This document shows positions 2,768-10,370 of a stretch of 64,000 bases of DNA, piece after piece. The DNA lies in NCBI GenBank assembly GCA_023663685.1, contig JAMPHB010000001.1, positions 213,436 to 277,435 of the forward strand, written 5' to 3'. This DNA is from Blautia sp. Lineage in GTDB: Bacteria; Bacillota; Clostridia; Lachnospirales; Lachnospiraceae. The stretch's first letter is position 1, and each line of letters begins with the position of its first letter. A program made the translations under genes and the position numbers. The notes under the pieces were generated by a model. It did not search any database, was not told the origin of the DNA, and worked only from the letters and a program-made list of their open reading frames with translations.

Positions 2768-2796
2768 TTGAAATTCGCAAGAAATGATGGTATTAT
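2768..2796 (+). promoter_or_regulatory. Sigma-A promoter of the ATP-grasp cluster
   Basis: TTGAAA at 2768-2773 and TATTAT at 2791-2796 with an exact 17-bp spacer. Transcription would start near 2803, leaving a leader of about 140 nt before the ATG at 2946. This also rules out the upstream in-frame ATG at 2784 as the translation start. Confidence 0.7.
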
Positions 2797-2824
2797 ATAT
2801 AAATAAAATACAATCAACGACAAA

Positions 2825-2858
2825 GGAGTCGGCAATATTTGTTGCTGTCTCTTTTTTT
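2825..2858 (+). terminator. Terminator-like hairpin in the 5' leader (candidate attenuator)
   Basis: Arm 2825-2835 (GGAGTCGGCAA) pairs with 2842-2852, with one mismatch and two G-U pairs, around a six-base loop, followed by a run of seven T. It sits between the promoter at 2768-2796 and the gene at 2946, so it could act as a transcription attenuator rather than as the terminator of the nuclease gene. The latter reading is not excluded. Confidence 0.5.
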
Positions 2859-2945: not shown

Positions 2946-5543
2946 ATGGCGGCATTTGAAAGAATTTTATCAGGAATACCGGAAATGGACAGGGCATTGG
3001 ATTCTATCCGGCTGGGTGACAATGTTGTATGGCAGGTAACAGGTCTGGAGGAGTTTACAGTATTTATGAAGCCTTATGTAAAACAGGCGGTGTGTGACGG
3101 AAGAAATCTGATTTATATTCGTTTTGCGGATCATGCACCTTTGCTGGAAGAGCAGGAGGGGCTTCGCATCATCCATGTTCCGCTTTCGCACAGGTTTGAA
3201 ACATTTACGGTGGAAATCCATAATATTATTGAAAAGGAAGGAAAAGATGCGTTCTATGTCTTTGACTGCCTTTCGGAGTTGCAGACGGCATGGGCAACTG
3301 ACCTTATGATGGGGAATTTTTTCAGCCTTACATGCCCGTTTCTGTTTGAATTGGATACAGTGGCATACTTTCCGGTTATCAGGGGGAAGCATTCTTTTGA
3401 AGCTGTTGCCAAAATACGGGATACGACACAGTTATTCTTGGATGTGTACAGCGGGCAGGAACTGTATTATGTGCGTCCGATGAAGGTGTGGAGACGGTAT
3501 TCTGAAACCATGTTCATGCCTCACAGATATGATGAAAAAAACGGAGCATTTCTGCCTCTTACGGATGGGGTGCAGGTAAGTCATTTTTATCAAACGGTCA
3601 ACAAGGGAAAGAAAATGGACGCAGCCCGGAATATGGACAGCTGGGACCGTTTTTTTGATTTGACAGTGCAGATGCATGAGCAGGGAATGGATGTGGCGAA
3701 AAACTGTGACCGGATATGTAATATTATGATGAGCAGGGATGAAAAGATGCGCATGATGATCAAGAAAAATTTTAAGCCGGAGGATTATTTTGAAATTAAG
3801 GACAGAATGATCGGAACGGGCCTGATCGGAGGAAAAGCCTGTGGAATGCTTCTGGCAAGAAAGATTATCGAAAATACCCGGACAGACCTTTTCCAGAGGT
3901 TAGAGCCGCATGATTCTTTTTATATCGGTTCTGATGTATTCTATACATATATTGTATATAACGGTTTTTGGGATCTTCGGATTAAGCAGAGGACGAAGGA
4001 AGGTTATTTTGCTTATGCGGATGAATTTGCAGGGAAGATTATGGAGGGCAATTTTCCGGCGGCAGAAAAAGAAAGTTTTTGCAGATTATTAGATTATTAT
4101 GGTTCTAATCCAATCATTGTCCGTTCCAGCAGCATATTGGAGGATGGCTTTGGAAATGCTTTTGCCGGAAAATATGAATCCGTATTCTGTGCAAACAGCG
4201 GAACGCTGGAGGAACGTCTTGCAGATTTTGAGCAGGCATGCCGGATTGTCTATGCGAGTACAATGTGCCAGTCTGCCCTTGATTACCGGGCGCGCAGGGG
4301 AATGGATCAAAGGGATGAACAGATGGCGCTTTTAGTACAGCGCGTGTCAGGCTCGTTTTATGGGGATTTTTTCATGCCATGTGCGGCAGGAGTGGGATAT
4401 TCCTACAGCCCTTACAAATTCATTGAGTCCATAGACCAGAGTGCAGGGATGCTGCGCCTTGTCATGGGTCTTGGAACCGGTGCTGTTGACAGGGTGCAGG
4501 GCTCTTATCCAAGACTTGTGGGTATGGACAGGCCGGAGCTCACGGTGTGCCATTCCGCCGGCGAGAAGCATCAATATTCCCAGCGCAAAGTGGATGTGAT
4601 TCATATTCCGGCGAAACAGGTAGAACACTGGGATTTTGAGAAAATCAGGGAGCGGATTCCGGCTTATATGTTAAGACTCTTTCTGGAACATGATTTTGAT
4701 GCGGAGCGTATGTTTCGTGAACGGGGGCAGAACAGAGAGATTTTATTTGTTTCCTGCGAAGGGCTGGTTCGAAATGAAAGCCTGATGGGGATGATGAAGG
4801 ATATTTTATCAGAAATCCAGAAAGAATATGATTATCCTGTGGATATAGAGTATACCATTAACGTAGCTGCGGATGGAGAATTTGTAGTAAATTTATTGCA
4901 GTGCCGCCCGCTGCAGATTGCAGGCAGTTCGGAAAACATATCCCTGCCCGATATCCGCAGAAAAGAAGATATTCTGTTTGAGTGTGTGGATTCTGCGATG
5001 GGACTCTCATGTGAAATTCCCCTGGATCTGATTGTTTTCATTGATCCGGTAAAATATTACGAAATGCCGTATAAGGATAAATACCGGATTGCAGGCGCTG
5101 TCAATAAGATTAACTGGAAATACAGGGAAGAGAAAAAACATATGCTGCTAATGGCGCCGGGAAGAATCGGAACCTCTTCACCAGAGCTTGGCGTACCCAC
5201 ATCTTTTGCCGATATCAGTGAATTTGACGCAATCTGCGAGATTGCAGAAAGCAGGGCGGGGTATATGCCGGAGCTTTCTTTTGGAAGCCATTTTTTTCAG
5301 GATCTGGTGGAAGCGGAGATTACATATATTGCCGTTTTTGGAAATGAGAGGACATTGCTGTTCCAGCCTGAGCTTTTGAATGGATGCGAAAATATTTTTG
5401 GCGGGATTGTAGAAAACGAAGGGGAACTGGAGGAAGTGATTCAGGTATATGATGTTCGCGGTGTCCATGCGCATCTTTACCATGATATCAGCAAAGGAAA
5501 AGTATTGTGCATATTTCATGGTAAACAGAAAATGATTCAATGA
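2946..5543 (+). CDS. PEP-synthase N-domain (PPDK_N ATP-grasp) protein with degenerate KaiC-like N-terminus
   Basis: An 865-residue protein. ATG at 2946 has GGAGG seven bases upstream; more upstream starts lie before the transcription start. Residues 1 to about 230 resemble a RecA/KaiC-like fold (LSGIPEMDRALDSIRLGDNVVWQV) but the P-loop GKT is absent. From about residue 290 comes an ATP-binding domain like that of PEP synthase and pyruvate phosphate dikinase: IGGKACGMLLARKI, IIVRSSSILEDGFGNAFAGKYES and RLVMGLGTGAVDRVQGSYPRL. The phosphohistidine swivelling domain and the PEP/pyruvate-binding barrel are not visible, so it is not a complete PEP synthase. The C-terminal part (PGRIGTSSPELGVP, PELSFGSHFFQDLVEAEITY) is typical of stand-alone members of this family. 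It heads a cluster of ATP-grasp and peptide-processing genes; a kinase or ligase role is inference. Confidence 0.75.
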   Translation: MAAFERILSGIPEMDRALDSIRLGDNVVWQVTGLEEFTVFMKPYVKQAVCDGRNLIYIRFADHAPLLEEQEGLRIIHVPLSHRFETFTVEIHNIIEKEGKDAFYVFDCLSELQTAWATDLMMGNFFSLTCPFLFELDTVAYFPVIRGKHSFEAVAKIRDTTQLFLDVYSGQELYYVRPMKVWRRYSETMFMPHRYDEKNGAFLPLTDGVQVSHFYQTVNKGKKMDAARNMDSWDRFFDLTVQMHEQGMDVAKNCDRICNIMMSRDEKMRMMIKKNFKPEDYFEIKDRMIGTGLIGGKACGMLLARKIIENTRTDLFQRLEPHDSFYIGSDVFYTYIVYNGFWDLRIKQRTKEGYFAYADEFAGKIMEGNFPAAEKESFCRLLDYYGSNPIIVRSSSILEDGFGNAFAGKYESVFCANSGTLEERLADFEQACRIVYASTMCQSALDYRARRGMDQRDEQMALLVQRVSGSFYGDFFMPCAAGVGYSYSPYKFIESIDQSAGMLRLVMGLGTGAVDRVQGSYPRLVGMDRPELTVCHSAGEKHQYSQRKVDVIHIPAKQVEHWDFEKIRERIPAYMLRLFLEHDFDAERMFRERGQNREILFVSCEGLVRNESLMGMMKDILSEIQKEYDYPVDIEYTINVAADGEFVVNLLQCRPLQIAGSSENISLPDIRRKEDILFECVDSAMGLSCEIPLDLIVFIDPVKYYEMPYKDKYRIAGAVNKINWKYREEKKHMLLMAPGRIGTSSPELGVPTSFADISEFDAICEIAESRAGYMPELSFGSHFFQDLVEAEITYIAVFGNERTLLFQPELLNGCENIFGGIVENEGELEEVIQVYDVRGVHAHLYHDISKGKVLCIFHGKQKMIQ

Positions 5544-5555
5544 TAGTAGAAAAAC

Positions 5556-5584
5556 TTGACACCTCATTCAAAAAAGAATATACT
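5556..5584 (+). promoter_or_regulatory. Strong sigma-A promoter before the circularly permuted ATP-grasp gene
   Basis: TTGACA at 5556-5561 and TATACT at 5579-5584, spacer exactly 17 bp. It lies just after the stop of the preceding gene, so the downstream genes have their own transcript. Confidence 0.8.
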
Positions 5585-5606
5585 GTACTTGATTTTAAGG
5601 ACAAAG

Positions 5607-5634
5607 GCGTTCTGCGGTAAGCAGAGCGCTTTTT
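5607..5634 (+). terminator. Terminator-like leader hairpin (candidate attenuator)
   Basis: GCGTTCTGC (5607-5615) pairs with GCAGAGCGC (5621-5629) around GGTAA, with one G-U pair, followed by five T. It lies about 15-20 nt after the predicted transcription start of the promoter at 5556-5584 and before the gene at 5671. It could stop most transcripts early, or end read-through from the upstream gene. Confidence 0.6.
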
Positions 5635-5670
5635 CTATTTTAAAGGACTTACATGAAAGGAGGAACCGCC

Positions 5671-6990
5671 ATGCGGCAGTTGGAATTATTAAGGCATACG
5701 GACAAGATCAACGAACTGTTGGCGCGCTACGGAGTAAAGTTTGGCATTTATAAAGATCATGTTTTCAAAGAACAGCTATTTCCATTTGACTCCATACCGA
5801 GAATTATTAAACATGATGAATTTAGCTTTTTGGAAAAAGGTTTAAAGCAGCGGGTGATGGCTCTGAATTTATTTTTAAAGGATATCTATAGCAGGAAGCA
5901 GATCGTGAAAGACGGGATTATCCCGGAGGATTTTATTTTTGCTTCCAGCGGTTATATGGCAGAGTGCGAAGGGACGGCCCCGCCCCGGGGGATTTATTCC
6001 CATATATCCGGCATTGATCTGGTAAAGGGGAAAGATGAAAACTGGTACATACTGGAAGATAACCTGCGGGTGCCCTCCGGTGCATCCTATCCCATGATTG
6101 CGAGGGATTTGTGCAGGAGAAGTTCCCCGGATACTTTTCGTGATTACCGGCTGGAGGATAATCGGAATTATGCGGATTTGCTGCGAAAAGCAATGGACTA
6201 TGTGAATCCGGGCGGACATACTGTGATTTTGACGCCGGGCAGGTATAACGCCGCATATTTTGAGCATTCTTATCTGGCGGAAAAGACGGGAGCGCATCTG
6301 GCAACCGGTTCGGAGCTGATTGCGGAAAATGATATGCTGTACTATATTTCATCCGGTGGAGCGAAAGAACGGGTGGGGGCTGTATACCGCAGAATATCGG
6401 ATGAATATCTTGATCCGATGAATTTCAATCCGGAATCTCTGATTGGCATTCCGCATATTTACGAAGTGTTTCGCAAGGGAAATGTGGCACTCCTGAATGC
6501 GCCGGGGAATGGCGTGGCAGATGATAAGGGAATTTATTATTTTGTTCCGAAGATGATCCGCTATTATCTGGGTGAGGAACCGATTCTAAGTAATGCGCCG
6601 ACATATCTGCCTTTTTACGAGGGGGATATGAACTATGTTTTGTCCCATTTTGATGATCTGGTTCTGAAAGATGTGGCAGAGGCAGGGGGATATGGTGTTG
6701 TTTTTGGAAATTCCATCACCAAACAGCAAAAGGAGGATTTTATCGCGCTGCTAAAGAAAGAGCCGAGACGCTTCATTGCACAGGAAGTCATTGATTTTCA
6801 GGATCTGGACATTGTAGACGGTGGGGAGATTGTACCAAGGAAAGCAGACCTTCGGGCTTTTGTGTTAATGGCGGAGGAGCCGATGGTGTGGAAGAGCGGT
6901 CTGACACGGTTTTCCAGAAATACGGATTCGTTTATCGTGAATTCATCACAGGGAGGAGGTTTTAAGGACACATGGGTATTATATCAGTAG
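5671..6990 (+). CDS. Circularly permuted ATP-grasp protein (COG2308 type)
   Basis: A 439-residue protein starting at ATG 5671, with AAAGGAGG just upstream; the in-frame ATG at 5653 lies before the ribosome site and is rejected. Recognisable family segments are RVMALNLFLKDIYSRKQIVKDGIIP, the nucleotide-binding NWYILEDNLRVPSGASY, VGAVYRRISDEYLDP and LKDVAEAGGYGVVFG. These place it in the circularly permuted ATP-grasp family that normally travels with alpha-E and transglutaminase genes, as it does here. The family is predicted to form amide or peptide bonds with ATP; the substrate is unknown. Its stop overlaps the start of the alpha-E gene by 19 bases, so the two are translationally coupled. Confidence 0.9.
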   Translation: MRQLELLRHTDKINELLARYGVKFGIYKDHVFKEQLFPFDSIPRIIKHDEFSFLEKGLKQRVMALNLFLKDIYSRKQIVKDGIIPEDFIFASSGYMAECEGTAPPRGIYSHISGIDLVKGKDENWYILEDNLRVPSGASYPMIARDLCRRSSPDTFRDYRLEDNRNYADLLRKAMDYVNPGGHTVILTPGRYNAAYFEHSYLAEKTGAHLATGSELIAENDMLYYISSGGAKERVGAVYRRISDEYLDPMNFNPESLIGIPHIYEVFRKGNVALLNAPGNGVADDKGIYYFVPKMIRYYLGEEPILSNAPTYLPFYEGDMNYVLSHFDDLVLKDVAEAGGYGVVFGNSITKQQKEDFIALLKKEPRRFIAQEVIDFQDLDIVDGGEIVPRKADLRAFVLMAEEPMVWKSGLTRFSRNTDSFIVNSSQGGGFKDTWVLYQ

Positions 6991-7634
6991 AACAGGCAGA
7001 CCATTTATTTTGGCTGGGAAGATATACGGAACGTGTATATACCACGCTCCGCCTCTATTTTCTGAGATTTGACAGCATGATTGATGAAGCCGCTGACAGT
7101 TATCAGGCATTTTGTGAATCCGTTGACATCCCGAATATTTATCTGTCAAAGGAAGATTTTCTGAACCGCTATCCTTTTGATGCACAGAATCCGGATTCTA
7201 TTATCAGTAACCTGAACCGGGCGTATGATAATGCGATTGTACTCAGGGAGAGCATTGGATCTGAAACACTGTCTTATATCCAGCTTGCGGTTTATGATAT
7301 GAATAAGGCGGCAGTCAGCCAGGCGCCCCTGATAGAGCTGCAGTACCTTCTCGACCATATTTTATCATTCTGGGGAGTTGCGGATGATCAGATTGATTCG
7401 GAGCAGGTGCGGAATATGATTAAGGCCGGGAAACGGATTGAGCGCATTGATATGTATGCGCGGCTGAAGAAATCACAGGAGGAGCTGGTACGGGAGGTCT
7501 GCCGTATGATTCCGAGGGTGGAGAGGAGCGGGCTGACGTATGACAGGGACAGGCTCGAAGAAGTGAAAAGACTTGTGGAAAATCCTGATTTGGATTACTA
7601 TAAAATTGTATCAAATGTTGAGGCAATTATATAG
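6972..7634 (+). CDS. Alpha-E domain protein (COG2307 type)
   Basis: A 220-residue, mostly helical protein that begins inside the end of the ATP-grasp gene, preceded by GGGAGGAGG. The N-terminus MGIISVEQADHLFWLGRYTERV is the signature of alpha-E proteins, found as partners of circularly permuted ATP-grasp enzymes. It is shorter than the roughly 310-residue proteobacterial forms. The biochemical role is not known; a scaffold or carrier role with the ATP-grasp partner is inference. Confidence 0.88.
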   Translation: MGIISVEQADHLFWLGRYTERVYTTLRLYFLRFDSMIDEAADSYQAFCESVDIPNIYLSKEDFLNRYPFDAQNPDSIISNLNRAYDNAIVLRESIGSETLSYIQLAVYDMNKAAVSQAPLIELQYLLDHILSFWGVADDQIDSEQVRNMIKAGKRIERIDMYARLKKSQEELVREVCRMIPRVERSGLTYDRDRLEEVKRLVENPDLDYYKIVSNVEAII

Positions 7635-7656
7635 TTTACAGGTTAGGAGTGATTTC

Positions 7657-8442
7657 ATGGCGGTGCTGCATTATGAATATAAGATGGAAATAAAATATGA
7701 GGAATATGTCGGCAGGTGTTATTTTACGATCAAGTGCATCCCAAGGGAAGATGCGAGACAACATTTACTGGAAAAGAAAATTTCACTGTTGCCGGAGACA
7801 GGATATTCATTCGGAGAGGATTCCTTTGGAAACAGCCAGATTTATGGATGTGAGACCAAGCCTCATAAACAGTTTGTTTTCCAGACATCCGGTGAGGTGG
7901 AAATTCTTCAGACAGAGTATGAGGAGGAACTTAAGGATGAACTGACCGGGGTTTTTCGTGTTCCTCATGGAAAATGCATACCGGGTTCCGGGATTTCAGA
8001 ATATTATCAATCCTGTGACTTTACAAAATGCGGCGGCCATTACGATATATGCATGGCATGGATGCATCGGCTGCATCAGGATTTTTCTTATGTGCCGGGT
8101 GCCACGCAGGTACAGACCACGGCAGAGGAAGCGTGGGAGCTTGGCAGGGGCGTCTGTCAGGACTATGCGCATATTTATGTCACCCTGCTCCGTATGGCGG
8201 AAATCCCTGCCCGTTATGTGTGCGGGCTGATTATTGGCGAGGGGGCGAGCCATGCGTGGGCAGAGGCGCTCTGTGATAACCGCTGGGTGGCATTTGACCC
8301 GACGAATGACTGTCTGGTGCTGGATCATTATATAAAGCTTGGACATGGGAGAGATGCAGCAGACTGTGCGATTAACCGCGGGCTTATGTGGAACAGTGGG
8401 GCACAGTCACAAAAGATAGACGTTTTGGTAAAAATGGTTTGA
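7657..8442 (+). CDS. Transglutaminase-like cysteine protease
   Basis: A 261-residue protein starting at ATG 7657, preceded by TTAGGAG. An N-terminal beta-rich region is followed by the transglutaminase core with its catalytic triad: Cys in GRGVCQDYAH, His in GASHAWAEAL and Asp in WVAFDPTND. The TTAEEAWELGRGVCQDYAH segment is typical of the COG1305 proteins that accompany alpha-E and ATP-grasp genes. It has no signal peptide, so it probably acts in the cytoplasm, cleaving or ligating a peptide product. It follows the alpha-E gene by 22 bp in the same operon. Confidence 0.9.
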   Translation: MAVLHYEYKMEIKYEEYVGRCYFTIKCIPREDARQHLLEKKISLLPETGYSFGEDSFGNSQIYGCETKPHKQFVFQTSGEVEILQTEYEEELKDELTGVFRVPHGKCIPGSGISEYYQSCDFTKCGGHYDICMAWMHRLHQDFSYVPGATQVQTTAEEAWELGRGVCQDYAHIYVTLLRMAEIPARYVCGLIIGEGASHAWAEALCDNRWVAFDPTNDCLVLDHYIKLGHGRDAADCAINRGLMWNSGAQSQKIDVLVKMV

Positions 8443-8476
8443 AACTGTTTGTACCGCTGATACAAAGGGCGGTGGA

Positions 8477-9448
8477 ATGGAGAGTAATATGATAAAAACG
8501 ATAGCATCCGTAGGGCTTCCGGTGGATGAAAAGCTTGAGATTAAAAAGAACCGCATTCTCCCTGAAGAAATCACGTCATCCATAGATAGTATGAAACGCA
8601 TCAGTATTGTTACAGGTATTCATGGGGATGAGCTGGAGGGGCAGTATGTCTGTTTTGAGCTCCAGCGCCGTATCGGGCAGAACAGGGAATGTCTTGCGGG
8701 GATTGTGGATATTTACCCGGCAATGAATCCATTAGGGATTGATTCCATTACCAGGGGAATCCCGGCGTTTGATCTGGATATGAACCGCTTGTTTCCCGGA
8801 GATATCAACGGCAGTATGATGGAATATGTGGCAGCCCGGATTATGGAGGATGTGGCAGGCTCTGACTGTGTATTGGATATCCATGCCAGCAATATTTATC
8901 TGACAGAGATACCGCAGATCCGCATCAATGAGCTGCATCAGGATACTCTGGTGCCGGTGGCAGAGGCCGCCAATGTTGATTTTATCTGGGTGCATGGAGC
9001 AAGTACTGTGCTGGAGGCAACCTTTGCGCATAGTTTAAATTCCATGGGGACGCCGGTGTTAGTCGTGGAAATGGGCGTGGGGATGCGGATTACACAGAGC
9101 TACGGAAAGCAGATGGTGGATGGGATTTTCAATTTGATGAAAAAGATGGGAATCTGGACAGGGGAAGTGAATCCGGTCAGAAAACCGATGATTTCCCGAA
9201 ATCCGGAGGATGTCAGCTATTTGAATGCCAGTGTTGGAGGCGTGTTTATTCCGTCTGTGCAGCATGGCGCAAGAATGAAACAGGGTGAACGGATTGGGTG
9301 TATTGTAGATCCGTTATGCGGGGAGGTGCTGGATGAAGTGTGCGCGCCGGAAGACGGTATGCTGTTTACAATAAGGAACTATCCCATTGTTGTCGAGGGT
9401 TCCCTGATGGGACGGCTGCTGAAAAAGGAGGTGTGCGGATATGAATAA
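8477..9448 (+). CDS. M14-type succinylglutamate desuccinylase/aspartoacylase family protein (active-site residues intact)
   Basis: A 323-residue predicted zinc hydrolase. Zinc ligands are visible in GIHGDELEG (His and Glu) and VLDIHAS (second His), and a catalytic Glu candidate in LVVEMGVGMR. DMNRLFPG is the Asn-Arg substrate-binding motif of this family. The C-terminal ~80 residues form the usual beta barrel (GGVFIPSVQHGARMKQGE). The start could also be ATG 8489, which has a better spaced GGAG. It overlaps the next gene by 8 bases. In this neighbourhood it may trim an amide-linked product made by the ATP-grasp proteins (inference). Confidence 0.87.
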   Translation: MESNMIKTIASVGLPVDEKLEIKKNRILPEEITSSIDSMKRISIVTGIHGDELEGQYVCFELQRRIGQNRECLAGIVDIYPAMNPLGIDSITRGIPAFDLDMNRLFPGDINGSMMEYVAARIMEDVAGSDCVLDIHASNIYLTEIPQIRINELHQDTLVPVAEAANVDFIWVHGASTVLEATFAHSLNSMGTPVLVVEMGVGMRITQSYGKQMVDGIFNLMKKMGIWTGEVNPVRKPMISRNPEDVSYLNASVGGVFIPSVQHGARMKQGERIGCIVDPLCGEVLDEVCAPEDGMLFTIRNYPIVVEGSLMGRLLKKEVCGYE

Positions 9449-10370
9449 AAGAAGCATTTATGAACTAAAGGGATTATACCGGGACACTTTCCGCGTGGTC
9501 GGCTATGAATTTGGGACAGGAGATCCGTCTGTCTGTATTGTGGGAAGTACCAGAGGAAATGAGGTACAGCAGATGTATTGCTGCTCTCATCTGGTGCGGA
9601 AAATGAAGCAGCTGGAAGAAGAGGGAAGAATCACAGAAGGCCATAAGATTTTGATTATTCCTTCTGTCAATCCCTACTCCATGAATATACACAAAAGATT
9701 CTGGTCAACCGATAACACAGATATCAACCGGATGTTTCCGGGCTATAATCTGGGGGAAACCACCCAGAGAATTGCGGATGGTGTTTTTAAGGAGATTTCA
9801 GAGTATTCGTTTGGAATACAGTTTACCTCTTTTTATATGCCGGGAGATTTTGTTCCGCATGTGCGGCTGATGGCTGAGGGATACAGCAGCCCTGAAACAG
9901 CGAAGCAGTTTGGCCTGCCCTATGTGATTATCCGCAAAGTAAGGCCTTATGATACGGCAACGTTAAACTATAACTGGCAGGTATGGGATACACAGGCATT
10001 TTCTTTGTATACGACGACTACGGCACGGATTGACAGGAACAGCGCCGGACAGGCAGTTTTGGCAGTTATGAATTTTTTGTCCCGGCAGGGAATGATAAAA
10101 TACAGCATACCGGACAGCTTGGATTCTAAAGTGGTATATGATGACGACATGATTTGCATAAAAACCGCAAAATCAGGGATTTTTGAACCGATGGTAAAGG
10201 CGGGAGAGGAAGTCAGCGTCGGACAGCCTCTTGCCAATATTCTGGATCCTTATGAGGGGAATATAGTAGAAACGATTTATGCCCCCTTTAACAGAGTTGC
10301 CTTTTTTGTGCATAATGAGCCGCTGACCTATGCGAATACAGCCGTGATTAAGCTGATTGAGAAGCTGTGA
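9441..10370 (+). CDS. M14/aspartoacylase-like paralogue with lost zinc ligands (probable pseudoenzyme)
   Basis: A 309-residue paralogue of the preceding gene, overlapping it by 8 bases and preceded by GGAGG. Overall fold markers are kept (VNPYSMNIHKRFWSTDNTDINRMFPGYN, including the Asn-Arg motif, and the C-terminal barrel SGIFEPMVKAGEEVSVGQ). The zinc-binding GxHGxE is GSTRGNE here (His to Arg), the second His region reads FGIQFTS, and the LVVEMG segment with the catalytic Glu has no acidic counterpart (LYTTTTARID). Hydrolytic activity is therefore doubtful; binding or regulation of its partner is possible. The reading frame is intact, so it is under selection rather than decayed. Confidence 0.82.
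   Translation: MNKRSIYELKGLYRDTFRVVGYEFGTGDPSVCIVGSTRGNEVQQMYCCSHLVRKMKQLEEEGRITEGHKILIIPSVNPYSMNIHKRFWSTDNTDINRMFPGYNLGETTQRIADGVFKEISEYSFGIQFTSFYMPGDFVPHVRLMAEGYSSPETAKQFGLPYVIIRKVRPYDTATLNYNWQVWDTQAFSLYTTTTARIDRNSAGQAVLAVMNFLSRQGMIKYSIPDSLDSKVVYDDDMICIKTAKSGIFEPMVKAGEEVSVGQPLANILDPYEGNIVETIYAPFNRVAFFVHNEPLTYANTAVIKLIEKL

What the first reader, a model, noticed from the sequence alone, without database searches (positions are those of the whole stretch)
2946..10370. Six-gene ATP-grasp / alpha-E / transglutaminase / aspartoacylase cluster, a predicted peptide- or amide-forming system
Seen: a PPDK_N-type ATP-grasp protein, a circularly permuted ATP-grasp, alpha-E, a transglutaminase with intact C-H-D triad, and two M14 desuccinylase/aspartoacylase proteins, most genes overlapping. 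Known: circularly permuted ATP-grasp, alpha-E and transglutaminase genes travel together and were predicted to make and process peptide-like products, with no product defined. The addition of the KaiC/PPDK_N protein and a paired M14 set differs from the usual neighbourhood and suggests a complete make-and-trim pathway for an unknown small molecule or protein tag. The substrate is inference.
Basis: partly seen in the sequence, partly recalled or inferred. Interest (0 to 1): 0.75.

Follow-up and report, generated by a model that had tools for sequence, protein, structure and literature searches.

The report
Nitrogen-controlled amide-bond enzyme gene cluster
A five-gene cassette of unknown product (an ATP-using ligase, a helper protein, a transglutaminase-like enzyme and a zinc hydrolase with a dead twin) and its neighbour gene appear to be switched on by the same RNA switch that gut Lachnospiraceae place before their ammonium-transport and glutamine-making genes, which points to a role in nitrogen shortage.

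Summary
The genes are real, but the conserved unit is five genes, not six. B (circularly permuted ATP-grasp), C (short alpha-E), D (transglutaminase-like), E and F (AstE/AspA-type M14 pair) keep this order in Lachnospiraceae and some other families: an Anbu-operon core without Anbu. E keeps zinc and catalytic residues; F has lost them in nearly every copy. Gene A (PPDK_N) directly precedes the cassette only in the window genome and two others found, and no KaiC signal was seen. B and A, even where unlinked, often carry the same leader: a mini-hairpin with a G4 hexaloop (mostly AAAGGC) that overlaps an intrinsic terminator, one half of the published ANTAR motif. A model of these leaders gave 49 sites in 18 of 20 chosen genomes: 9 before B, 4 before A, 32 before other genes (glutamine synthetase 8, ammonium transporter 6, glutamate synthase 3, P-II 2, amino-acid transporters and others), 2 unassigned, 2 at 3' ends. 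Twenty of 21 genomes carry exactly one ANTAR gene, next to glutamine synthetase. Best reading: a nitrogen-shortage module that makes and breaks amide bonds. Control is inferred from sequence; the substrate is unknown. Proteobacterial cousins are published as nitrogen-limitation controlled.

The parts
2768..2796 (+). promoter-like site of gene A (TTGAAA-17-TATTAT, 10 of 12)
   Evidence: consensus match only (20 such sites in the region, 17.3 expected)
2818..2854 (+). leader of A: mini-hairpin CGAC[AAAGGA]GTCG (hexaloop A1/G4) overlapping a terminator-like hairpin with T tract
   Evidence: not found by model R1 at E<=1
2946..5543 (+). gene A: PPDK_N-type ATP-binding protein, 865 aa; separate transcription unit, same predicted regulon; not part of the conserved cassette
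5556..5584 (+). promoter-like site before B (TTGACA-17-TATACT, 11 of 12)
   Evidence: consensus match only
5598..5613 (+). mini-hairpin P2, AGGAC[AAAGGC]GTTCT, hexaloop with A1 and G4, exclusive with the terminator
5603..5633 (+). terminator-like hairpin (13 bp) with T tract in the B leader
5671..6990 (+). gene B: circularly permuted ATP-grasp (first ATG of the frame at 5653; 5671 preferred, AAAGGAGG before it)
   Evidence: (3n6x, E=8e-113)
6972..7634 (+). gene C: short alpha-E protein, 220 aa
7657..8442 (+). gene D: transglutaminase-like protein, Cys-His-Asp triad intact
8477..9448 (+). gene E: AstE/AspA-type M14 amidohydrolase with H49, E52, H136, E198
9441..10370 (+). gene F: degenerate AstE/AspA-type M14 protein (R for the first zinc His, no second His, Y for the catalytic Glu)

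Best explanation
BCDEF is a nitrogen-limitation module that makes and breaks amide bonds, a variant of the Anbu-operon core in which an M14 active/inactive pair occurs in place of the Anbu hydrolase. Shown by sequence: conserved cassette; intact D and E sites; degenerate F; a leader shared with nitrogen genes. Inferred control: an RNA polymerase starting just upstream meets a terminator in the leader. When nitrogen is short, the ANTAR protein encoded next to glutamine synthetase holds the small hairpin, which excludes the terminator, and B-F are transcribed along with ammonium transporter, glutamine synthetase, glutamate synthase, P-II, amino-acid uptake genes and gene A. Inferred chemistry (least certain): B, with C, uses ATP to join a carboxylate, probably of glutamate or aspartate type, to an amine; D (thiol) and E (zinc, with F as non-catalytic partner) act on that amide or isopeptide and release amino acid or ammonia. 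The net effect would be recovery of nitrogen from compounds not otherwise usable, in the logic of gamma-glutamylation routes.
For: Cassette. Leader: a terminator-type hairpin lies in the upstream gap of 48 of 76 first-gene-like B starts against 95 of 609 other starts; within 60 nt 33 of 76 against 30 of 609, A 7 of 31; with a divergent upstream gene B 6 of 14 against 13 of 242. Mini-hairpin (A or G at loop 1, G at 4) in 67 of 95 A/B leaders that have a terminator hairpin, 55 of them with A, against 6.7% of mononucleotide shuffles. Covariation in 42 chosen leaders: mini-hairpin 95.8% of cells paired, 23 two-sided cells against 7.9 in shuffles. Regulon: the model gave 51 rows, 49 sites, in 18 of 20 genomes: 9 before B, 4 before A, 32 before other genes, 2 unassigned, 2 at 3' ends (the A site G039:C106 and the B site G071:C57 by position). 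The 32: glutamine synthetase 8, ammonium transporter 6, glutamate synthase 3, SBP_bac_3 3, ABC ATPase 3, P-II 2, asparagine synthase 2, GATase/PurF-like 2, CTP synthase, class-III aminotransferase, serine dehydratase 1 each. The mini-hairpin is in 32 of 32, 30 with A at loop 1. Own genome: sites before B, type III glutamine synthetase and an SBP_bac_3 gene, plus one 3' terminator that outscores the last two. ANTAR: exactly one in 20 of 21 genomes, beside a glutamine synthetase gene in 20 of 20. Papers: Burkholderia cluster with table values -6.0 to -9.4 in an ntrC mutant (PMC5491218, passages); P. putida PP_2685 and PP_2688 log2 4.44 and 3.99, nitrate against ammonium (PMC8050072, passages).
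Against: No experiment on these genes; no substrate known. The published ANTAR RNA has two hairpins; the first was not found (upstream A1/G4 hexaloop with 4 or more bp in 8 of 79 B and 0 of 16 A leaders), and in the window the promoter-like site leaves no room for it. About a third of B starts show no such hairpin (28 of 76); for A the total is no higher than background (8 of 31, p=0.11), only the close and AAGGCG-type counts are. The window's own A leader is not found by the model at E<=1. G081 has an ANTAR gene but no model hit; G114 has neither. The model was trained on A/B leaders, the 20 genomes were chosen for carrying them, only 150 first-look candidates per genome were scored, and it also finds plain 3' terminators. 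One covariation measure of the mini-hairpin, pairs with a change on both sides, is not unusual (3; 64 of 500 shuffles as high). In the neighbour count the ABC ATPase is no commoner near BCDEF (24 of 98) than near A (11 of 43), families were picked after looking, and related genomes are not independent. E/F also occur without B-D.
Confidence: 0.6

Rival explanations
1. A protein- or peptide-tagging system as proposed for the Anbu operon: B adds residues to a protein or peptide, D cross-links or cleaves, E trims the tag. Nitrogen control would reflect protein turnover.
For: This is the published reading of the core (Iyer 2009, not held; cited in passages of PMC6376114 and PMC5666114).
Against: No small ORF conserved beside the cassette (20-75 aa within 1.2 kb; at most 3 of 98 loci share one) and the gaps inside it are short (medians -19 to 13.5 nt, though 11 of 98 D-E gaps exceed 100 nt), so no encoded peptide substrate is visible. 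E and F fall with small-molecule deacylases (DoeB, CphZ) in fold searches. Metabolic genes recur as neighbours.
Confidence: 0.15
2. Nitrogen storage or peptide synthesis: B makes an isopeptide-rich product that E takes apart, as CphZ does with cyanophycin dipeptides.
For: E's family profile matches CphZ (8ein, E=1.2e-9); [quoted passage not shown]
Against: A storage product would be made when nitrogen is plentiful, whereas the predicted control is the opposite. DoeB and 3cdx are nearer to E than CphZ. I did not search for cyanophycin synthetase.
Confidence: 0.1
3. E/F serve a separate, perhaps nucleotide-linked pathway and merely sit next to BCD.
For: E/F occur without BCD; 14 of 22 such loci have a PurL-like gene downstream on the same strand.
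Against: The order B-C-D-E-F is kept in same-class genomes G525 and G482 and in G436, and an M14 pair also follows BCD in G491 and G513. The E/F-only forms make one clade (21 of its 23 tips, support 1.0) nested among BCDEF forms in a midpoint-rooted FastTree, as expected if BCD was lost.
Confidence: 0.1
4. The hairpins are ordinary terminators of upstream genes and say nothing about nitrogen.
For: The model also hits 3' ends (L289, L320, L322), and many leader hits have a co-directional gene ending within 150 nt upstream.
Against: Hairpins stand before B even with a divergent upstream gene (6 of 14 against 13 of 242); 32 of 74 B hairpins end 9-39 nt before the homology-defined start, which leaves no room for a promoter; the mini-hairpin is in 32 of 32 leaders of other genes and in none of the three 3'-end sites.
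Confidence: 0.04

Closest known systems
Anbu operon (ATP-grasp, alpha-E, transglutaminase, Anbu)
   Same: B, C and D in the same order; published nitrogen-limitation control in Proteobacteria
   Different: no proteasome-fold gene in any of 20 order-level BCDEF genomes searched; an M14 active/inactive pair present instead; short alpha-E; attenuator-type leader, where sigma54/NtrC acts in Burkholderia
ANTAR antitermination leaders (eut, nas, ami; dual-hairpin RNA, PMC3369931, passages)
   Same: hexaloop with A1 and G4, overlapping intrinsic terminator, nitrogen genes, ANTAR protein in the genome
   Different: only the second hairpin found; very short 5' leader in the window if the promoter-like site is right
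AstE/AspA M14 enzymes DoeB/EutE (6twm), 3cdx, CphZ (8ein)
   Same: fold; E has the same kind of metal and catalytic residues
   Different: about 15-23% identity in the structural matches; a fixed non-catalytic twin F
Putative glutathionylspermidine synthase 3n6x
   Same: B aligns over nearly its full length (E=8e-113)
   Different: its function was not established in anything read here
Gamma-glutamylation routes with PuuD-type peptidase C26
   Same: C26 genes lie near BCDEF in 10 of 98 loci, in several within 50 nt; ligate-then-hydrolyse logic
   Different: the PuuA-type ligase belongs to another family (recalled); C26 absent from most loci

Membership tests
Anbu operon | CP ATP-grasp, alpha-E, transglutaminase in this order | tested here: met
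Anbu operon | Anbu (proteasome-fold) gene in the operon | tested here: not met
   0 of 20 order-level BCDEF genomes have a PF00227 match at E<=0.001 (several incomplete); the other 8 have one match each, 7 above cut-off, away from the cassette; HslV or Anbu not told apart
ANTAR-controlled leader | mini-hairpin with hexaloop A1/G4 overlapping an intrinsic terminator | tested here: met
   (some loops have G at position 1)
ANTAR-controlled leader | a second, upstream A1/G4 hairpin | tested here: not met
   8 of 79 B leaders and 0 of 16 A leaders
ANTAR-controlled leader | ANTAR protein encoded in the genome | tested here: met
   own genome, one gene, directly after a glutamine synthetase gene; ANTAR domain only, no receiver domain in the 4 proteins scanned
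ANTAR-controlled leader | binding and antitermination | not testable with these tools
   needs biochemistry
M14 AstE/AspA catalytic family (E) | two His and one Glu zinc ligands plus catalytic Glu | tested here: met
   of 103 in the BCDEF class, H49 100, E52 101, H136 101, E198 101; exceptions are L226 and L264 (wrong frame called) and truncated L256
M14 AstE/AspA catalytic family (F) | the same residues | tested here: not met
   R at H49 in 100 of 103, Y at E198 in 100 of 103; no His at H136 in 59 of 59
PPDK/PEP synthase (A) | PPDK_N with the central and PEP-binding domains | tested here: not met
   PPDK_N only; NCBIfam matches far below cut-off
KaiC (A) | KaiC/RecA domain | tested here: not met
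   sequence level only, fold not tested

The most novel reading that the evidence does not exclude
A new nitrogen-salvage route: an ATP-grasp ligase with alpha-E tags amines or amino acids, and a transglutaminase-like enzyme plus an obligate M14 active/pseudoenzyme pair release the nitrogen. It is switched on by a single-hairpin form of ANTAR antitermination that defines a Lachnospiraceae nitrogen regulon including gene A, and it shows that the unexplained Anbu-operon core is generally a nitrogen-shortage system under unrelated regulators in different phyla.
Probability: 0.3. Interest if true: 0.82.

Novelty: new variant of a known kind. Interest (0 to 1): 0.68.

Why it matters
The circularly permuted ATP-grasp, alpha-E and transglutaminase set has no defined product in anything read here. 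A regulon-level clue found in Clostridia, independent of NtrC, says when the system is used and in which company, so the open question becomes a direct growth and metabolite test. It also proposes a compact attenuator as a nitrogen switch of common gut bacteria, and a conserved active/inactive M14 pair.

Tried and rejected
KaiC domain in A: no match. A as a cassette member: rejected on neighbourhoods, then partly reinstated as a co-regulated gene. Encoded precursor peptide beside the cassette: no conserved small ORF. Known riboswitch: in 10 loci one Rfam match at gathering score, a T-box far from B in L121; in the window only matches below gathering score. The first hairpin searches used loose patterns and mixed leaders with 3' terminators. 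The own-genome site L290 was first taken for a terminator because the ORF listing leaves out frames running off the end; one search showed a start 49 nt downstream and a type III glutamine synthetase. The first control for the leader used genes inside operons and was unfair; one search replaced it with first-gene-like ORFs. Own-genome C10:5058 (L289) is a 3' terminator and was set aside although it outscores the glutamine synthetase site. An E-F complex model was not made (the two structure jobs went to the monomers). Print: looked for the M14 pair with this ligase; 51 gave no paper, 88 one on another protein (PMC4000134, passages), 89 only PMC3597751. One search listed 25 papers, judged by titles and abstract starts, with passages read in four; two searches gave only PMC3597751. 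Iyer 2009 is not held. Of PMC3369931 (12 of 32 places), PMC6376114, PMC5666114, PMC5491218, PMC8050072, PMC8407117, PMC10206079, PMC4000134 and PMC3597751 I saw passages only. Of the ANTAR paper the supplements were not read, so a Lachnospiraceae hit there cannot be excluded. Trees are FastTree only. Covariation was counted on 42 leaders chosen by hand from 95; terminator pairing there (98.2%) is partly by construction, since leaders were picked for that hairpin.
Full report
What is there. The window lies in a 2.3-Mb, 82% complete genome. The closest named matches to gene F are Lachnospiraceae, many of them gut genomes, some with odd bin labels. Six same-strand genes lie at 2946-10370: A (PPDK_N), B (circularly permuted ATP-grasp), C (alpha-E), D (transglutaminase-like), E and F (AstE/AspA-type M14). 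Upstream are a cytosine methylase and an Eco47II-type endonuclease; downstream is a GGDEF protein. A and B are separated by about 127 nt (109 if B starts at 5653) holding a promoter-like site and a terminator-like hairpin.

The conserved unit is B-C-D-E-F. In 150 family genomes B is found in 23 and F in 41. After 5 weak F hits are dropped, 21 of the 23 B genomes also have F (Fisher p=5e-14). Of the 68 with at least 4.2 kb upstream of F, 64 are BCDEF, 3 the same with C split into two matches, and 1 (L256) a truncated remnant. The order is also kept outside the family. In G491 and G513 a BCD set with long alpha-E is followed by two M14 genes, whereas G210, G407 and G357 have BCD with no M14 match beside it. 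In G357 alpha-E and the transglutaminase form one 633-aa frame. Median gaps in 98 loci are -19 (B-C), 13 (C-D), 13.5 (D-E) and -5.5 nt (E-F). Alpha-E itself is rare: 9 of 348 phylum genomes and 13 of 196 order genomes.

A is a separate gene. A homologue is present in 40 of 150 family genomes. In 40 loci, covering 41 of its 46 places, only one has B-F beside it, a C-terminal fragment in G036. In the genus sample 7 of 40 genomes have A and 7 of 40 have B; three have both, one of them (G168) only a 60-aa A fragment. A lies directly before BCDEF in the window, in G186 (95% identical A over 862 residues, one in-frame TAG reported) and in L284, where a peptidase C26 gene lies between. Co-occurrence of A and B is weak. 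No KaiC relationship appeared at the sequence level.

The M14 pair. In the BCDEF class of 103 loci E keeps H49, E52, H136 and E198 in 100-101; the exceptions are two miscalled frames (L226, L264) and truncated L256. F has Arg for the first His and Tyr for the catalytic Glu in 100 of 103, and no His for the second zinc ligand in 59 of 59. In G491 and G513 the second M14 protein keeps the metal ligands but has Met for the catalytic Glu. AlphaFold models are confident (E pLDDT 90.1; F 91.8). Both match DoeB/EutE 6twm and 3cdx first and CphZ 8ein/8eip further down. A profile of E matches CphZ at E=1.2e-9 and 3cdx at 1.2e-19. E/F without B-D occur at 21 loci after two cut by contig ends are left out; 14 of 22 (one cut) have a PurL-like gene downstream. 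They make one clade of 23 tips with two BCDEF loci inside it, so E/F can serve without this ligase.

Relation to the Anbu operon. Passages of PMC6376114 and PMC5666114 describe the operon as ATP-grasp, alpha-E, transglutaminase, Anbu. [quoted passage not shown] No proteasome-fold match was found in 20 of 20 order-level BCDEF genomes; the 8 others searched have one match each, 7 above the cut-off, away from the cassette. M14 therefore occurs where Anbu would be. Calling it a replacement is inference.

A leader shared with nitrogen genes. Upstream of B lies a 13-bp terminator-like hairpin, in the window 37 nt before the preferred start codon, with the promoter-like site ahead of it. Among first-gene-like ORFs, B has such a hairpin in its upstream gap in 48 of 76 cases (95 of 609 others), within 60 nt in 33 of 76 (30 of 609), and of the AAGGCG type in 26 of 76 (9 of 609). 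A has 8, 7 and 5 of 31; its total does not differ from background (p=0.11), but the close and AAGGCG-type counts do (p=0.001 and 0.0003). With a divergent upstream gene B still has 6 of 14 against 13 of 242. At the base of the 5' arm lies a second, smaller hairpin, typically GAAC[AAAGGC]GTTC: 67 of 95 A/B leaders (55 with A at loop position 1, the rest G) against 6.7% of mononucleotide shuffles. It uses the same bases as the terminator, so the two exclude each other. Its helix covaries in 42 leaders on four of five measures (95.8% paired; 23 two-sided cells against 7.9). A hexaloop with A at 1 and G at 4 is the signature described for ANTAR RNA (PMC3369931, passages). The first of the two published hairpins was not found.

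The regulon. A covariance model of 42 A/B leaders gives five rows, four sites, in the own genome at E<=1: the B leader (53 bits), a 3' terminator without the mini-hairpin (43 bits, L289), a site 49 nt before a type III glutamine synthetase (34 bits, L290) and a weak site (22 bits, E=0.6) before an SBP_bac_3 gene (L292). The window's A leader is not among them. In 20 other genomes, chosen because they carry A or B and with only 150 first-look candidates each scored, it gives 51 rows in 18 genomes. Two sites appear on both strands, so there are 49 sites. I read all of them: 30 loci handed out, 17 fetched later, and two placed by position on leaders already seen (an A site in G039, a B site in G071). 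Nine precede B, 4 precede A, 32 precede other genes, 2 are unassigned (L306, L314) and 2 lie at 3' ends (L320, L322). Pfam names the 32 as glutamine synthetase 8, ammonium transporter 6 (one with a fused P-II domain), glutamate synthase 3, SBP_bac_3 3, ABC ATPase 3, P-II 2, asparagine synthase 2, glutamine amidotransferase domain 2 (PurF-like by N-terminus, recalled), CTP synthase 1, class-III aminotransferase 1, serine dehydratase beta 1. All 32 have the mini-hairpin, 30 with A at loop position 1; the two 3'-end sites and own-genome L289 do not. A tight pattern scan of the fetched loci also found copies before P-II in L282 and before FUSC-HAD and an ABC ATPase in L106; ten of its 48 distinct hits had no gene within 200 nt. 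An ANTAR gene is present exactly once in 20 of 21 genomes, beside a glutamine synthetase gene in 20 of 20. G114 lacks it and has no leader hit; G081 has it and no hit. No set of genomes chosen without regard to A or B was tested.

Neighbours. Around 98 BCDEF loci (105 before removing duplicates; 1064 kb of flank) same-strand genes recur: SBP 12, permease 15, cytidylate-kinase-like 16, FUSC-HAD 13, peptidase C26 10, citrate synthase 5, isocitrate dehydrogenase 4, several within 50 nt of the cassette. In 43 A loci (514 kb) these are 0, 0, 0, 0, 0, 1 and 0. The ABC ATPase does not differ (24 of 98 against 11 of 43), nor clearly CysK (6 against 3). The SBP representative best matches an Asp/Glu-binding model, below its cut-off. 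The families were chosen after seeing BCDEF loci, and A loci are themselves predicted regulon members, so these counts are descriptive.

How it most likely works. A nitrogen-shortage module: control by ANTAR attenuation (inferred from anatomy), ATP-driven amide formation by B with C (inferred from family), hydrolysis or transfer by D and E with F as a non-catalytic partner (inferred from residues). Two literatures fit: NtrC/sigma54 control of the core in Burkholderia (PMC5491218), and induction of PP_2685 (proteasome-type) and PP_2688 (the ATP-grasp) in P. putida on nitrate (PMC8050072). Induction under shortage favours recovery of nitrogen over storage. The substrate is unknown.

Noticed in passing
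L114, L117, L118, L256: Remnants of the cassette in which the 5' part of B stands next to the 3' part of F (or of E), the middle missing, in separate genomes; decay of the unit or assembly collapse.
   Followed up: partly
L122-L144 (E/F-only loci): The M14 pair without BCD lies upstream of a PurL-like gene in 14 of 22 loci; in 6 of 21 such E proteins the Arg at 104 is changed and in 3 the His at 49.
   Followed up: partly
L176:7561-9462: Alpha-E and transglutaminase in one 633-aa frame in G357.
   Followed up: no
L070, L071, L068: C-terminal fragments of A (about 215-300 aa; L068 starts at a contig end) in genomes that also carry B or B remnants.
   Followed up: no
L101, L106, L245-L251, L270: A cytidylate-kinase-like gene sits near BCDEF or its ABC transporter in 16 of 98 loci, 0 of 43 A loci; role unknown.
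   Followed up: no
L326: In G041 the ANTAR gene is followed directly by a peptidase C26 gene of the kind found near BCDEF.
   Followed up: no
L359:867-2630: An ammonium transporter with a fused P-II domain, itself behind the leader hairpin.
   Followed up: no
window:701-2742: Cytosine methylase with HTH and Eco47II-type restriction endonuclease directly upstream.
   Followed up: no
window:60951-60999: A weak match (20.4 bits) to the leader model, apparently inside a coding stretch.
   Followed up: no
L289:1501-1557: A 3'-end hairpin with almost the same stem as the B leader but without the mini-hairpin; leader and terminator may share an origin.
   Followed up: no
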